Assembly: GCA_003695675.1 (NCBI GenBank)
Contig: RFIA01000005.1
Location: 1-54,408, forward strand
From: Chloroflexota bacterium
Lineage (GTDB): Bacteria; Chloroflexota; Anaerolineae; Aggregatilineales; Phototrophicaceae
DNA length: 54,408 nucleotides
Direction: 5' to 3'
A model generated the notes under the pieces. It saw only the letters and a list, made by a program, of their open reading frames with translations, made no database searches and was not told the origin of the DNA. A program made the translations under genes and the position numbers. Shown in pieces: positions 44,785 to 50,878 of the stretch. Positions within the stretch are counted from its first letter, which is position 1, and every line of letters begins with the position of its first letter.

Positions 44785-47700
44785 TCACGACGTCGGCGTG
44801 ACAGCATCTGTCGGGATCGCAGAGGGCGTCGGACTATCAATCGGCGTCCACACCGGCAGCGGAGTCAGCGGCGTGGTCGTCGGCGTCGGTGTGCGCGTTA
44901 TGAAGAGTGTCGGCGCAAGCGGTGTCGTCGTCCCCGCTATACATAATGGGGCAACATTGAACTGTTGCCGTTGTTCGCAATTGAGCACAATCACCTGACG
45001 ATTTTGATAAGTCCACGCAATCAATTCATCGAGCGAATCGATACGATGCAAAATCATGCGTCCCGCAATACAAGAAGCATTTTCATCGCGCCGACCACAT
45101 GAGGTGGAGAGGGCAGTGACGCCGTCGGGGGAGAAAGCCACACTCATAACTTCATCTGTGTGTCCTATAAAACGGCGGATTGCCTCATCGCGTTCTACAT
45201 CCCACAAGATCAGGGTATTATCTTTTGAGGCAGAGAGAGCGGTTACCCCATCGGGAGAGAAGTCCACGCTATCAACAACATCCGTGTGCCCTGTGAAGCG
45301 TCGCAATTCCACACCACGCGCCACATCCCACAAGATCACCGTATTATCAACCGAGCCAGAAAGAGCGGTCACCCCATCGGGGGAGAAGGCCACACTCAAA
45401 ACTTCAGCCACATGCCCCTCAAAGCGACGTAGTTCCGTGCCACGTTCCACATCCCACAAGATCAGGGTATTATCCCATGAGCCGGAGAGAGCAGTGGCAC
45501 CATCGGGGGAGAAAGCTACACTCGTCACAGGAGCCGTGTGCCCCGCAAAGCGGCGGATTTCGTCGCCACGTTCCACATCCCACAAGATCAGCGTGCTGTC
45601 CCATGAGCCAGAAAGAGCGGTGGCGCCATCGGGGGAGAAAGCTACACTCGTCACAGGAGCCGTGTGCCCCGCAAAGCGGCGTAGTTGCGTACCGCGTGCC
45701 ACATCCCATAAGATCAGCGTATTATCAAATGAGCCGGAGAGCACGGTCATCCCATCGGGGGAGAAAGCCACGCTCGTCACAGGAGCTGTGTGCCCGGTAA
45801 AATTGCGGATTGCCGCGCCACGTTCCACATCCCACAAAATCAGCGTATTATCCAAGGAGCCGGAGAGCGCCATGGCGCCATCGGGGGCGAAGGCCACGCT
45901 CGTCGCAGCCGCCGTGTGCCCTTCAAAGTGGCGAATTTCGTCGCCGCGTGCCACATCCCACAAAATCACCGTATTATCCAAGGAGCCAGAGAGGACAGTG
46001 GCACCATCGGGGGAGAAAGCCACGCTCAAAATATCCGCCGCGTGTCCCTCAAAGCGGCGTAGTTGCATACCGCGTTCCACATCCCATAAGATCAGCGTAT
46101 TATCCAAGGAGCCAGAGAGCGCCGTGGCACCATCGGGGGCGAAGGCCACGCTCCTCACAGCCGCCGTGTGCCCTTCAAAACGTCGGATTGTCTCGCCGGT
46201 GTTCATATCCCACAAGATCAGCGTATTGTCCAATGAGGCGGAGAGGGCGGTGGCGTCGTCAGGGGAGAAAGCCACGCTCAAAATATCATCCGTGTGTCCT
46301 TCAAAGCGGCGGATTGCTTCACCGGTGCTCACATCCCACAAGATCAGCGTATTGTCCAATGAGGCGGAGAGAGCGGTAGCGCCGTCAGGGGCAAAGGCCA
46401 CACTCATCACAACATCCGTGTGCCCTTCAAAGCGGCGGATTATCTTGCCGCGCTTCACATCCCACAAGATCAACGTATTATCCGATGAGCCAGAGAGCGC
46501 CGTGGCACCATCGGGGGCGAAGGCCACGCTCCTCACAGCCGCTGTGTGCCCTTCAAAGTGACGGATTGCCTTGCCGCTCGCGACATCCCACAAAATTAGC
46601 GTATTGTCCAATGAACCAGAGAGGGCGGTGGTGCCGTCAGGGGCGAAGGCCACACTCAAAACCTCGTCTACGTGCCCCACAAAGCGACGTAGTTCCACAC
46701 CGTGCTCCACATCCCATAAGATCAGTGTATTGTCCAATGAGCCAGAGAGCGCGGTGGCGCCGTCGGGGGAGAAGGCCACACTCGTTACAAGAAACGCATG
46801 TCCTTCAAGACGGCGGCGTAGGCCACTGTTGTAACCGATGTCGGCCAAGATGCTTTGTGATAAGGGGGGCGGATTATCATGTGCGTTGGCGGCGAGGGCA
46901 ACCGGCAACGCCTCTAACACATTGCCATTTTTGTACAAGACGTCGGCCTGTTGCGCGAGTTCGAGCGATTTGATGTCGTTTTCAGCTTGTGCGATGACAC
47001 TTCGTGACTGCGCCACATCCGTGCTGATGGCATCGCGTGTCGCTTCTCCGGCGACGACGGTGCTTTGAGCATCGCGTCCCTCACGCTGCGCCTCGCGCAA
47101 CGAGACAATCGCGCCGACAATCACGACGACGGCGGCGACGACAAGCACGAGCAGCGTCGGCAAGATGAAAGTGCCATAGATGTAGGCGCGACGAGCAATC
47201 TCGCGACGTTCATCTTCGACCTCGCGGCTGCGGGCGATGTACTCACGGTGCAGGTTGAGCGGTTCGGGGTTTTTATCCACACTGTGTTCGAGCCAATATT
47301 CGGCGCCGTCAACCTCGATACCGGTCAGCAAAAAGCCGTCATCTTTGTCGCCGCGCTCCCAGCGCAACGCACGTTGCAAAATCTCGGTATGTTCACGGAC
47401 GTGTTCGTGATCGGCTTTGATGGCCGTGATTAATTTGTCGAGCGCTTCGTCGAAATCATCGTCATCACGAAAGAAGAGCCAATTGTGCATCGAAATGGCT
47501 TCCATGTTGTTATTAGCAATCGCGGTCAATTCGCGGTCGCCAAGCCATTGCTCTTCATATTGTTCCAGCTTGCCTACTTCGTTCTTTAAAGCCTCGAGCG
47601 CGTCATTGTTGTTCGGTTCGACATAGACGACGGGGATGATGCGCTTGCCGGTTTGGGTGGCATAATCGAATTCGAGATGACAAATCGGCGATTCGAGCGA

Positions 47701-47901
47701 GTCTTGCGTGATGATGAAGACAAAATTGTCCGCCCCTTCGATGCCCTTCTTGATCTCCATCCACCAATGCGCTGCCGGTGGAATGTTTTTCCGATCAATC
47801 CAGATGTCTTCGTCACTGAATCCGTTGTCTTTGAGCGCGTCGAATAAGCGCTCCACGAAGTCGCGATTGTTCGACGAATACGAGATGAATAGATCAGTCA
47901 T
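44785..47901 (-). CDS. TIR-TM-WD40 receptor-like protein
   Basis: A protein of 1038 aa. TIR domain at residues 1-130: start MTDLFISYSSNNRDFVERLF, loop IDRKNIPPAAHWW, and catalytic Glu77 candidate in SPICHLEFDYA as in NADase TIRs. Residues about 243-267 form one TM. A coiled stretch (270-330) follows. Residues about 350-950 hold 13 near-identical WD40 blades plus a degenerate 14th, enough for two seven-bladed propellers. The C-terminus is Thr/Pro-rich. Positive residues before the TM place TIR inside and WD40 outside. Likely an extracellular or envelope sensor with a cytoplasmic NAD-cleaving or signalling head. AAGGGTGG lies before the ATG. Confidence 0.9.
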   Translation of the reverse strand: MTDLFISYSSNNRDFVERLFDALKDNGFSDEDIWIDRKNIPPAAHWWMEIKKGIEGADNFVFIITQDSLESPICHLEFDYATQTGKRIIPVVYVEPNNNDALEALKNEVGKLEQYEEQWLGDRELTAIANNNMEAISMHNWLFFRDDDDFDEALDKLITAIKADHEHVREHTEILQRALRWERGDKDDGFLLTGIEVDGAEYWLEHSVDKNPEPLNLHREYIARSREVEDERREIARRAYIYGTFILPTLLVLVVAAVVVIVGAIVSLREAQREGRDAQSTVVAGEATRDAISTDVAQSRSVIAQAENDIKSLELAQQADVLYKNGNVLEALPVALAANAHDNPPPLSQSILADIGYNSGLRRRLEGHAFLVTSVAFSPDGATALSGSLDNTLILWDVEHGVELRRFVGHVDEVLSVAFAPDGTTALSGSLDNTLILWDVASGKAIRHFEGHTAAVRSVAFAPDGATALSGSSDNTLILWDVKRGKIIRRFEGHTDVVMSVAFAPDGATALSASLDNTLILWDVSTGEAIRRFEGHTDDILSVAFSPDDATALSASLDNTLILWDMNTGETIRRFEGHTAAVRSVAFAPDGATALSGSLDNTLILWDVERGMQLRRFEGHAADILSVAFSPDGATVLSGSLDNTVILWDVARGDEIRHFEGHTAAATSVAFAPDGAMALSGSLDNTLILWDVERGAAIRNFTGHTAPVTSVAFSPDGMTVLSGSFDNTLILWDVARGTQLRRFAGHTAPVTSVAFSPDGATALSGSWDSTLILWDVERGDEIRRFAGHTAPVTSVAFSPDGATALSGSWDNTLILWDVERGTELRRFEGHVAEVLSVAFSPDGVTALSGSVDNTVILWDVARGVELRRFTGHTDVVDSVDFSPDGVTALSASKDNTLILWDVERDEAIRRFIGHTDEVMSVAFSPDGVTALSTSCGRRDENASCIAGRMILHRIDSLDELIAWTYQNRQVIVLNCEQRQQFNVAPLCIAGTTTPLAPTLFITRTPTPTTTPLTPLPVWTPIDSPTPSAIPTDAVTPTS
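45106..46838 (-). repeat. 13-14 tandem 126-bp WD40 coding repeats
   Basis: Copies of one 126-bp unit follow at exact 126-bp spacing; the phrase encoding TLILWD (reverse strand) recurs at 45207, 45333, 45459, 45585, 45711, 45837, 45963, 46089, 46215, 46341, 46467, 46593 and 46719, approximately. DNA-level similarity is very high, so the array is recent or homogenised. Confidence 0.85.
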
Positions 47902-48993: not shown

Positions 48994-50802
48994 TCATTGT
49001 GCTTGCGGCAAGCTCAGCAGATAAGCGATGAGGGCGTCGAGTTCTTCCGGCGAATGATCGACAATCAATTGGTGCATACCGGGCAAGATGAAAAGTTCGC
49101 GCAAAGTCGCGGCGCGACCATCGTGCAAATAGGGCGCGCTCAACCACAACCAACGCAAACCGGGTGTGTCAAATTCGCCACCTGTGCCGACGTCGTGGCG
49201 TTGCAAATCCGTCCCAGCGACGCCGACATGACACGTCGCGCATTCGAGCTGCGTGAACAATGCCGCGCCGCGTGCGACCAAATCAGCATCATCGGGTGGA
49301 CTCGCCGTCGGCCCCTGCAATGTCGCCAGATAAGCCGTCAATGTGTCGAGGTCGGGCGAGAGGCCGGCGTGTGGTTCGGCGAGCGCATCAAATGGTGTTT
49401 GCCCTTCGATGAGGCCGGTGCCAGCTTGCAAGGTGCGTATCTTGAGTTCGACATCGGCCAATTCGTCCCACGTCCCCGACCAATTATAAGGCGCGGTTTC
49501 CAACAAATTAAACAACACCGGCGTATTGCGCACGCCATCACTGACGCCCGGCCACACACGCCCGTCTGAAAGACCATCGAAGTGGCAACTTGCACAACTG
49601 ATGAGATTGTCGTTGCTGACACGGGCGTCGGTCGCGCTGTGAAACAATTGCGACCCGATGAGAATATCTGCCGGAATCGTCAAATTACTGATGACAATCA
49701 GATCGATGACGCGACGCTCTGCCGTGTTGATAATCGAAATCGTGCCGTCGAGCATGTTATGCACAAAGCCGACCGAGTTGTCACGGTTGAGCAATATCGC
49801 CCGCGGATTCGCGCCGACGGGAATATTGTCTATCGCCCGGCCAGACGACAAATCGATCATCGAGACGTCGTTACTGCCCGCGTTAGCAACATAGATGATG
49901 CGTTGATTGCGGTCGACAGCAGCCGCAAACGGCATATTCACCGGGCGGTCAACAGCCGAAAGCGCGATGCGGTCTCGTGGGATGAGTTGCAAAGTGCTCA
50001 AATCAACCGTATTCACAATCGGGAAAATCGTCGTGTCATACGTCGGATTTTGCTCATGGTTATTGCTACGACTCTGTGGCAGATAGGCGAGGCCGCGAGT
50101 CGTATCGATTTCTATCGCTTGCGACAGGCTGACATCGCCGCCGGTGCTGATGCTTTCGACCACGCGCCCGGTCGGCAAATAAATCAGTGTCAATTGCCCA
50201 TTCCACAAATGCGTGACGTACAATAAATTGCCCCATATAGCGATGCCAGCTGGGTTCGGCGGCACGGCGATGCGCTCAAGAATGTCACCGGTGATGATGT
50301 TGAGGCGTACAACTTCATTACTGCCCTGCACGGTGATGTAGGCGTCGATATTGCTGTTGCTGACGATACCATAAGGCAGCACACCGCCAACCGGGAAGGT
50401 GTTCTCGACTACGGCGGCGCGGATGTCGATGACACTCACCGTCGCGTCACCGCGATTGACGACGAGGGCGCGTTCGCCATCATCCGTCAGCGCGATAGTG
50501 CGCGGGTCAAGCCCAACAGGGATTTCGGCGACAACAACACCTTGTACCGGCGCGACAATCGAGACCGTATTATTGAGCATGTTGGCCGCGATGAGCAAAC
50601 CTTCGGGCGTGATGACCATCGAACTGCTGCTGATAGCGCGGTTGGTTCGGGCGTCCGGCAAAACATATAACGGCGGGTTATCATCCTGCGCTTGTACGGC
50701 AAACATGCCGACGGCCATCATGGGCAGCATCATGAACAGCCACACGACGACCAAACCCGAACGCGCCGCTAAGCCTCTCTTGATTGACATGACCGTGTGC
50801 AT
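48994..50802 (-). CDS. YncE-like beta-propeller fused to di-heme cytochrome c (MauG/CcpA-like)
   Basis: A secreted protein of 602 aa with an N-terminal signal (about residues 15-38, ending VQAQ). A YVTN/YncE-type seven-bladed propeller spans about residues 45-370 (repeats such as VSIVAPVQGVVVAEIPVGLDPRTIALTDD). The C-terminal di-heme module contains CASCHFDG and CATCHVG heme attachments and SAPYLHDGRAATLRELF, as in MauG and cytochrome c peroxidase relatives. AGGGG at 7-nt spacing fixes the ATG at 50802. Possible role: binding of a peptide or metal with peroxidase or electron-transfer chemistry outside the membrane. Confidence 0.85.
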   Translation of the reverse strand: MHTVMSIKRGLAARSGLVVVWLFMMLPMMAVGMFAVQAQDDNPPLYVLPDARTNRAISSSSMVITPEGLLIAANMLNNTVSIVAPVQGVVVAEIPVGLDPRTIALTDDGERALVVNRGDATVSVIDIRAAVVENTFPVGGVLPYGIVSNSNIDAYITVQGSNEVVRLNIITGDILERIAVPPNPAGIAIWGNLLYVTHLWNGQLTLIYLPTGRVVESISTGGDVSLSQAIEIDTTRGLAYLPQSRSNNHEQNPTYDTTIFPIVNTVDLSTLQLIPRDRIALSAVDRPVNMPFAAAVDRNQRIIYVANAGSNDVSMIDLSSGRAIDNIPVGANPRAILLNRDNSVGFVHNMLDGTISIINTAERRVIDLIVISNLTIPADILIGSQLFHSATDARVSNDNLISCASCHFDGLSDGRVWPGVSDGVRNTPVLFNLLETAPYNWSGTWDELADVELKIRTLQAGTGLIEGQTPFDALAEPHAGLSPDLDTLTAYLATLQGPTASPPDDADLVARGAALFTQLECATCHVGVAGTDLQRHDVGTGGEFDTPGLRWLWLSAPYLHDGRAATLRELFILPGMHQLIVDHSPEELDALIAYLLSLPQAQ

Positions 50803-50878
50803 CAACAATCCCCTAATTGTGCCTACTCAGCATACACGAGCGAAGCGAGCAGGACAAAAGCAATTGAACTGCAAAGAC

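What the first reader, a model, noticed from the sequence alone, without database searches (positions are those of the whole stretch)
44785..47901. TIR-TM-WD40 protein with a fast-evolving propeller
The gene joins a TIR domain with a catalytic Glu candidate (Glu77), a single TM and 13 nearly identical 126-bp WD40 units plus one degenerate unit. The units differ mainly at a few positions per blade (the residues before SVAF, the SGS-x-DN position, the WDV-xx-G segment). Extreme internal identity with hotspots is known for ligand-recognising WD40 arrays such as fungal HET-E/NLR proteins, so concerted evolution of a recognition surface is plausible. If the TM orientation is right, the propellers are outside and the TIR head is inside, a receptor layout unlike typical cytosolic TIR defence proteins.
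Basis: partly seen in the sequence, partly recalled or inferred. Interest (0 to 1): 0.75.

Follow-up and report, generated by a model that had tools for sequence, protein, structure and literature searches.

The report
Membrane TIR receptor with double propeller
This bacterial gene encodes a membrane protein that most likely holds a NAD-cleaving TIR enzyme inside the cell and a two-propeller sensor outside it; it belongs to a large receptor family in Chloroflexota and filamentous cyanobacteria whose outer part is repeatedly rebuilt while the inner part stays the same, somewhat like a bacterial counterpart of Toll-like receptors.

Summary
The gene is real: 44785-47901 (-), 1038 aa, with a TIR head, Glu77, one TM helix, 13 WD40 units of 42 aa plus one degenerate unit. 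"Nearly identical" is wrong: units average 73% aa and 76% nt identity. Silent sites are not saturated (dS 0.75 against about 3 expected), so the array does descend from an amplification, and every blade is closest to another blade of its own protein. Loop positions on both faces change at the neutral rate, so diversifying selection is not shown.

The protein belongs to a large family. Glu77 is invariant in 114/114 heads. Outside topology is strongly supported: K/R 4.4 versus 1.8 beside the TM; even/odd cysteines beyond it 74/5, against 28/51 in the head. Fourteen blades form two 7-bladed propellers. One genome carries near-identical heads on unrelated propellers. The same linker-TM-14-blade layout occurs behind a kinase-nSTAND1 head in this genome.

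Best reading: a type-II membrane receptor with a cytosolic NADase-type TIR and a renewable extracellular double propeller. Ligand, activity and defence role are untested. New variant of a known kind; interest 0.5.

The parts
44785..47901 (-). Whole gene: TIR - juxtamembrane module - TM - helical linker - 14-blade WD40 double propeller - Thr/Pro-rich tail (1038 aa)
47491..47901 (-). Cytosolic TIR head, aa 1-137
   Evidence: TIR_2 match E 1.4e-21; AF2 head model pLDDT 94.9, VIA-align Z 14.6-17.8 to SARM1, plant NLR and TLR TIRs
47671..47673 (-). Candidate catalytic Glu77 in the SxxCxxE motif
   Evidence: Invariant in 114/114 unique TIR+JM heads; in register with the Glu of the Cat1 TIR SDWCWDE motif
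47206..47490 (-). Juxtamembrane (JM) helical module, aa 138-232 (NW..HT..W..W..P..S), unnamed in Pfam
   Evidence: Invariant residues in A1/A3; HMM of it hits 122 TIR ORFs and, outside TIR proteins, only the two kinase-nSTAND1-TM-WD40 proteins of this genome among 2613 ORFs
47098..47154 (-). Single transmembrane helix, aa about 250-268
   Evidence: Hydropathy; part of one helix aa 216-279 in the head model
46804..47097 (-). Helical linker to the propellers, aa 269-366 (ALPVALAAN..PP..)
   Evidence: Matches the linkers of kinase-nSTAND1-TM-WD40 proteins in the same genome, E 1.8e-7 and 2.4e-5
45166..46803 (-). Thirteen 42-aa WD40 units (aa 367-912), 73% aa identical on average
45040..45165 (-). 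Fourteenth, degenerate unit with Cys-pair loop CGRRDENASC, aa 913-954
45949..46830 (-). Propeller 1 (seven blades), aa 358-651
   Evidence: AF2 pLDDT above 90 in nearly all blocks; Z 51.0, rmsd 0.7 over 286 residues to the 7-bladed v13WRAP-T 7big
45043..45948 (-). Propeller 2 (seven blades), aa 652-953
   Evidence: Z 49.7, rmsd 1.2 over 290 residues to PkwA WD40 5yzv
44788..45039 (-). C-terminal tail, aa 955-1038: LDELIAWTYQNRQVIVLNCEQRQQFNVAPLC motif then Thr/Pro-rich stretch
   Evidence: Same kind of motif in L106, L107, L119, L141, L149 and in the kinase-nSTAND1 protein L078

Best explanation
P0001 is a type-II, single-pass membrane receptor. The N-terminal TIR head with its catalytic-type Glu lies in the cytosol. 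A conserved juxtamembrane helical module and the TM helix join it to an ectodomain made of two seven-bladed WD40 propellers, closed by disulfides and a Thr/Pro-rich tail. The most likely mechanism is that a ligand binding the propellers, or clustering of receptors at the surface, changes TM packing, brings TIR heads together and switches on NAD+ cleavage (signal or cell suicide). The head evolves conservatively while the propeller array is periodically rebuilt or homogenised by amplification of its own blades at a nearly constant total of 14, giving paralogous receptors with one output and different outer surfaces. Supported here by sequence statistics and models: domain order, topology, Glu conservation, blade count, turnover. 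Inferred: ligand, clustering, NADase activity, and a role in defence or non-self recognition.
For: Glu77 in 114/114 unique heads, Ser71 in 113/114, Cys74 in 110/114. A TM follows in 107/114, and is the only one in 104/107. K/R in the 15 residues before the TM 4.44 versus 1.79 after; N>C in 94, N<C in 5 of 107. Cys count in the C-terminal part is even in 74 of 79 complete proteins (p 8e-17), while the head control is 28 even, 51 odd. Other members carry CHASE2, FGE-sulfatase or SH3_3 in the same place. Among complete members the commonest blade count is 14 (26), then 13 (12). AF2 shows two propellers, 358-651 and 652-953; TIR fold Z up to 17.8. dS 0.75 and third-position identity 0.61 versus about 3 and 0.36 for random synonymous codons. 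Best match of each blade is in its own protein in 13/13, 11/11, 11/12 and 14/14; no positional orthology with the closest relative L106 (0.648 versus 0.644). Of the 25 printed pairs with the most similar heads, about half keep blade register and about half have lost it. Three paralogs of one MAG are 73-90% identical over head residues 1-180 but far less alike beyond the TM.
Against: No biochemical evidence for NADase activity or for a ligand. Topology is statistical, not measured, and homologs are related, so the p-value overstates independence. No recurrent neighbour and few defence genes beside 104 neighbours, although no background rate was measured. Loop substitution rates do not exceed the silent rate overall (0.76 and 0.69 versus 0.75), so adaptive diversification is not shown. 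Some relatives keep blades in register (L137/L154).
Confidence: 0.6

Rival explanations
1. Same membrane receptor layout, but the TIR head is a signalling or assembly module for ordinary sensing (cell contact, envelope stress, multicellular behaviour), not an immune effector.
For: No defence neighbourhood for P0001 and no recurrent partner in 104 neighbours. The same chassis carries a Ser/Thr kinase-nSTAND1 head in L078 and L079, an output usually linked to signalling. CHASE2 and FGE ectodomains are general sensors. 38 TIR_2 matches in one genome.
Against: The catalytic-type Glu is invariant in 114 of 114 heads, including those with very different ectodomains; a pure scaffold would tolerate its loss.
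Confidence: 0.28
2. The propellers are cytosolic (reverse topology, or a membrane-bound sensor of intracellular phage products).
For: Most characterised bacterial TIR defence proteins, and NACHT-WD40 proteins, sense inside the cell (prior knowledge; PMC12222747 for fungal NLRs). The same genome has a TIR-NB-ARC-WD40 protein without a detected TM (L064).
Against: Positive-inside bias in 94 of 107 versus 5; even-cysteine bias 74 to 5; Thr/Pro tail; CHASE2 member L150.
Confidence: 0.07
3. The blade similarity is only the trace of an old duplication plus drift in surface loops; there is no recognition arms race. WD40 arrays simply duplicate easily.
For: Loop dN about equals dS on both faces, core dN 0.06; median dS 0.75 means the amplification is not recent. 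The tract-exchange test is significant over all 76 polymorphic sites (p 0.001) but not at the 16 silent sites. Continuous amplification is general in propellers (PMC9218822).
Against: Loss of blade register in about half of the most similar head pairs and very different propellers on near-identical heads in one genome imply that the outer part is renewed repeatedly. Five of the seven HNWD diversifying positions, placed by my own register (GH = positions 8-9), are among the ten most variable columns (mean-rank p 0.003), but these are loop positions in most WD40 proteins.
Confidence: 0.35

Closest known systems
WRAP propeller of Nostoc punctiforme Npun_R6612 (PDB 2YMU; Dunin-Horkawicz 2014, Afanasieva 2019, PMC6805158)
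   Same: 14 WD40 blades amplified from one another and folding as two 7-bladed propellers; best PDB relative by Foldseek and phmmer (42-44% identity); linked to TIR/STAND proteins
   Different: WRAP sits on a STAND ATPase without a membrane anchor in the descriptions read, and its blades are practically identical; P0001 has TIR directly before a TM, no STAND domain seen, and 73% identity
Fungal HNWD NLRs (HET-E, HET-D, HET-R; PMC12222747)
   Same: WD40 arrays homogenised within a gene, two 7-bladed propellers, variable loop positions partly the same columns
   Different: HNWD are cytosolic HET-NACHT-WD40 with 80-100% identical repeats, diversifying selection and allelic length variation, none shown here
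Metazoan Toll-like receptors / IL-1R family (PMC7075850)
   Same: Single-span receptor with a cytosolic TIR and an extracellular recognition domain
   Different: Opposite order (TIR at the N-terminus, type II), WD40 propellers instead of LRR or Ig, catalytic-type Glu invariant; analogy of layout only
Ser/Thr kinase-nSTAND1-TM-WD40 proteins (L078, L079 in the same genome) and PkwA
   Same: Same linker, TM position, 14 blades and (L078) C-terminal LTC..PLC motif; JM-like segment before the TM
   Different: Head is a kinase plus nSTAND1 ATPase
Cytosolic bacterial NADase TIR effectors (SPARTA, AbTir, Cat1, Thoeris ThsB)
   Same: TIR fold; Cat1 is the best PDB sequence match (E 7e-13); SxxCxxE motif
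   Different: Those act with Argonaute/APAZ, CRISPR or Thoeris partners; no such partner beside P0001

Membership tests
TIR domain proteins (PF13676) | TIR fold and profile match | tested here: met
   E 1.4e-21, 79 bits, cut-off 28; AF2 model Z up to 17.8 to solved TIRs
NADase-type TIR enzymes | Catalytic Glu in SxxCxxE | tested here: met
   Glu77 invariant in 114/114, aligned with Cat1
NADase-type TIR enzymes | NAD+ cleavage | not testable with these tools
   Needs an assay
TIR-JM-TM receptor family described here | JM module between TIR and a single TM | tested here: met
TIR-JM-TM receptor family described here | C-terminal part outside the cell | tested here: met
   Indirect, by statistics over the family: charge bias, Cys parity, CHASE2/FGE/SH3_3 ectodomains; not measured
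WRAP-type recently amplified propeller | 14 blades as two 7-bladed propellers | tested here: met
WRAP-type recently amplified propeller | Near-identical blades, almost no silent changes | tested here: not met
   aa identity 73%, median dS 0.75, min 0.28
NLR / HNWD-like STAND receptors | NACHT or NB-ARC NTPase between effector and repeats | tested here: not met
   Only TIR, a three-helix JM segment and the TM helix lie before the linker in the model
NLR / HNWD-like STAND receptors | Diversifying selection at top-face loops | tested here: inconclusive
   Loop dN 0.76 (top) and 0.69 (bottom) versus dS 0.75; columns 5, 7, 36 above the silent rate but no significance test made
Metazoan Toll-like receptor | N-terminal LRR ectodomain, TM, C-terminal TIR | tested here: not met
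   Order reversed and WD40 ectodomain
Thoeris / SPARTA / CBASS | Cognate partner genes adjacent | tested here: not met
   No PADLOC match in nine neighbours; only weak TIR-level matches of P0001 itself

The most novel reading that the evidence does not exclude
Anaerolineae and filamentous cyanobacteria run a repertoire of true membrane immune or allorecognition receptors: one conserved cytosolic NADase TIR head (or an alternative kinase-nSTAND1 head) on a shared transmembrane chassis whose extracellular double propeller is renewed by blade amplification to track changing surface ligands such as phage or non-kin molecules.
Probability: 0.27. Interest if true: 0.8.

Novelty: new variant of a known kind. 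Interest (0 to 1): 0.5.

Why it matters
Characterised bacterial TIR defence proteins mostly sense inside the cell. A widespread TIR family with its sensor outside, a conserved catalytic-type Glu and an ectodomain that is repeatedly rebuilt would be a bacterial analogue of surface immune receptors, and would link bacterial TIR enzymology to outside-in recognition. It also gives a direct test of how double propellers turn over while keeping 14 blades, and of whether a TIR NADase can be gated across a membrane by one helix.

Tried and rejected
No viral contig encodes a relative of the full protein. Strain-level comparison of repeat number was impossible: no same-genus genome among the 60 relatives. 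The closest full-length relative L106 (54% identity) has 11 blades by my count and comes from a metagenome assembly, so blade loss and assembly collapse cannot be separated. Block duplication by lag: identity at lags 1 and 3 only slightly raised (p about 0.02-0.04). Tract exchange between blades: significant over all polymorphic sites (blades 3 and 6 share 56 nt, p 0.001), not at silent sites. A diversity-generating retroelement was considered: the only RVT_1 gene found is on contig C166, none near this gene on C140. A third kinase-nSTAND1-TM-WD40 protein (C94) gave no JM HMM match, so JM homology across heads rests on two proteins with modest E-values, 7e-6 and 3e-4. PDB fold comparison of the head tested mainly the TIR part (aa 1-166); the JM module was not folded alone. 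A PPC-like extra domain suspected by eye in the L106 tail gave no Pfam match. The ten literature searches found no paper describing TIR-TM-WD40 receptors, but the library holds only open-licence papers, so absence proves little.

Full report
WHAT IS THERE. The ORF 44785-47901 (-) is intact, 1038 aa, ATG start. From the N-terminus: TIR (aa 1-137), a helical juxtamembrane (JM) segment (138-232), one TM helix (about 250-268), a helical linker (269-366), thirteen 42-aa WD40 units (367-912), a fourteenth degenerate unit with a Cys-pair loop (913-954), and a tail with two more Cys and a Thr/Pro-rich end. Tandem Repeats Finder gives 13.3 copies of 126 bp at 77% matches. Residue 77 is Glu.

HOW ALIKE THE BLADES ARE. 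Mean pairwise identity is 73% aa (60-90%) and 76% nt; median dS 0.75, dN 0.19. But the array is not ancient either: with random synonymous codons the same proteins would give dS near 3 (saturated) and third-position identity 0.36, against 0.75 and 0.61 observed. Among 38 family members with at least seven alignable blades P0001 ranks second in uniformity; a Nostoc member (L136) has 82% and median dS 0.11.

CONCERTED EVOLUTION. Each of the 13 blades of P0001 has its best match inside P0001; the same holds for 11/11, 11/12 and 14/14 blades in L106, L130 and L176. Against its closest full-length relative L106 (54% overall) there is no positional orthology: 0.648 for same-order blades versus 0.644 for the others, with 0.73 inside each protein. 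In the 25 printed pairs with the most similar heads (66-90%), about half keep blade register (for example L137/L154, 0.81 versus 0.46) and about half have lost it (for example L102/L130, heads 80%, blades 0.34 versus 0.33). L102, L122 and L130 lie in one MAG (contigs WGMX01); L102 is 78-90% identical to the other two over the first 180 residues, and L122 and L130 are 73-80% identical to each other there, while beyond the TM identity falls to roughly 10-40% (L102 pairs) or 33-65% (L122/L130). So the outer part is renewed under a stable head.

SELECTION. Strand and core columns have dN 0.06; loop columns on the top face 0.76 and on the bottom face 0.69, against dS 0.75. The face assignment follows the general WD40 blade layout (my knowledge), not a measurement on the model. 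This is what relaxed loops give; it neither shows nor excludes diversifying selection. Five of seven HNWD diversifying positions fall among the ten most variable columns, using a register I inferred (GH at HNWD positions 8-9).

TOPOLOGY. In 107 TM-bearing relatives the 15 residues before the TM hold 4.44 K/R on average and those after 1.79; N exceeds C in 94 and the reverse holds in 5. In 79 complete proteins the Cys number beyond the TM is even in 74 (0, 2, 4, 6, 10, 12, 14) and odd in 5, while in the head it is even in 28 and odd in 51. That is the signature of disulfide pairing outside the cytosol; relatedness of the proteins makes the nominal p-value too small, but would hardly create parity at so many differing counts. 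Members with CHASE2, FGE-sulfatase or SH3_3 in place of the propellers agree. TIR in, propellers out is therefore well supported, though not measured.

STRUCTURE. The head model (A3, 40 sequences) has pLDDT 94.9 and its TIR part matches SARM1, plant NLR and TLR TIR structures (Z 14.6-17.8). The full model (pLDDT 85.9; TM region and tail low) shows 14 blades; aa 360-651 match a 7-bladed WRAP design (Z 51.0, rmsd 0.7, 286 residues) and 652-953 match PkwA (Z 49.7, rmsd 1.2, 290 residues). 2YMU is the top Foldseek and phmmer hit. Hence two 7-bladed propellers, as a prediction.

FAMILY. Thirty-eight TIR_2 matches occur in this genome, and 61 of 61 genomes searched (own and 60 relatives) hold a match to the head query. 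A search of one genome per species returned, among its best 80 of at least 408 relatives, only Chloroflexota (mostly Anaerolineae) and filamentous cyanobacteria. Glu77 is present in 114/114 unique heads. Blade counts of complete TM-bearing members peak at 14 (26 proteins) and 13 (12), with a smaller cluster at 7-8 (10) and 21 proteins without WD40. The Glu lies in register with the Cat1 TIR motif.

SHARED CHASSIS. The linker and TM region of P0001 finds two kinase-nSTAND1-TM-14xWD40 proteins in the same genome (E 1.8e-7 and 2.4e-5; domains), L078 with the same LTC..PLC tail motif. An HMM of the JM segment, among 2613 ORFs, hits TIR proteins and only these two others, right before their TM; a third such protein (C94) is not hit. 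So head exchange on a shared chassis is likely, on modest statistics.

SURROUNDINGS. Neighbours of P0001 are a glutaredoxin-like gene, an alpha/beta hydrolase, a cytochrome-type protein and unknowns; none matches PADLOC. Among 104 immediate neighbours of relatives no family recurs in more than four, and PADLOC hits are scattered singletons apart from mad2 in two. The receptor seems self-contained. No background rate was measured.

MECHANISM AND VERDICT. Most likely a type-II membrane receptor: an outside ligand or receptor clustering brings cytosolic TIR heads together and switches on NAD+ cleavage. The anatomy and topology I hold at about 0.85, NADase-type output at about 0.65, a defence or non-self role at about 0.4. 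It is a new variant of known kinds (TIR effectors, amplified double WD40 propellers), not a member of NLRs (no STAND domain seen), of metazoan TLRs (reverse order) or of strict WRAP (blades not near-identical).

Noticed in passing
L066 (G000:C334:3-1319), L064 (G000:C53:3-2312), G000:C247:3-197: Two other TIR genes of this genome end at contig ends inside WD40 arrays similar to P0001's blades, and a third contig begins inside such blades: the repeats seem to break the assembly, so this genome may hold more such receptors than it shows.
   Followed up: partly
L064:3-2312: TIR-NB-ARC-WD40 protein without a detected TM in the same genome, with blades 73% like those of the P0001-derived query: a STAND version beside the membrane version.
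   Followed up: partly
L066:3-473 and window 45040-45165: The same Cys-pair loop (CGRRDEN..C) sits in blade 14 of P0001 and in blade 1 of its closest paralog.
   Followed up: no
L049:1-1773: Protein with two TIR domains (aa 28-119 and 456-545) and two TM helices between them.
   Followed up: no
L054:4624-6171: TIR-TM protein whose C-terminal part is a PD40-type propeller, a different propeller class on the same kind of layout.
   Followed up: no
L150:5848-7956: Cyanobacterial (Stenomitos frigidus) TIR-JM-TM protein with a CHASE2 sensor domain.
   Followed up: no
L083, L084, L082, L144: TIR-TM genes of this family sometimes lie in tandem next to each other.
   Followed up: no
L136:5992-9672: Nostoc sp. 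ATCC 43529 relative with the most uniform blades found (82%, median dS 0.11): a better case of recent amplification than P0001.
   Followed up: partly
window 48994-50808: Protein joining a YncE-like propeller with di-haem cytochrome c peroxidase and cytochrome c domains.
   Followed up: no
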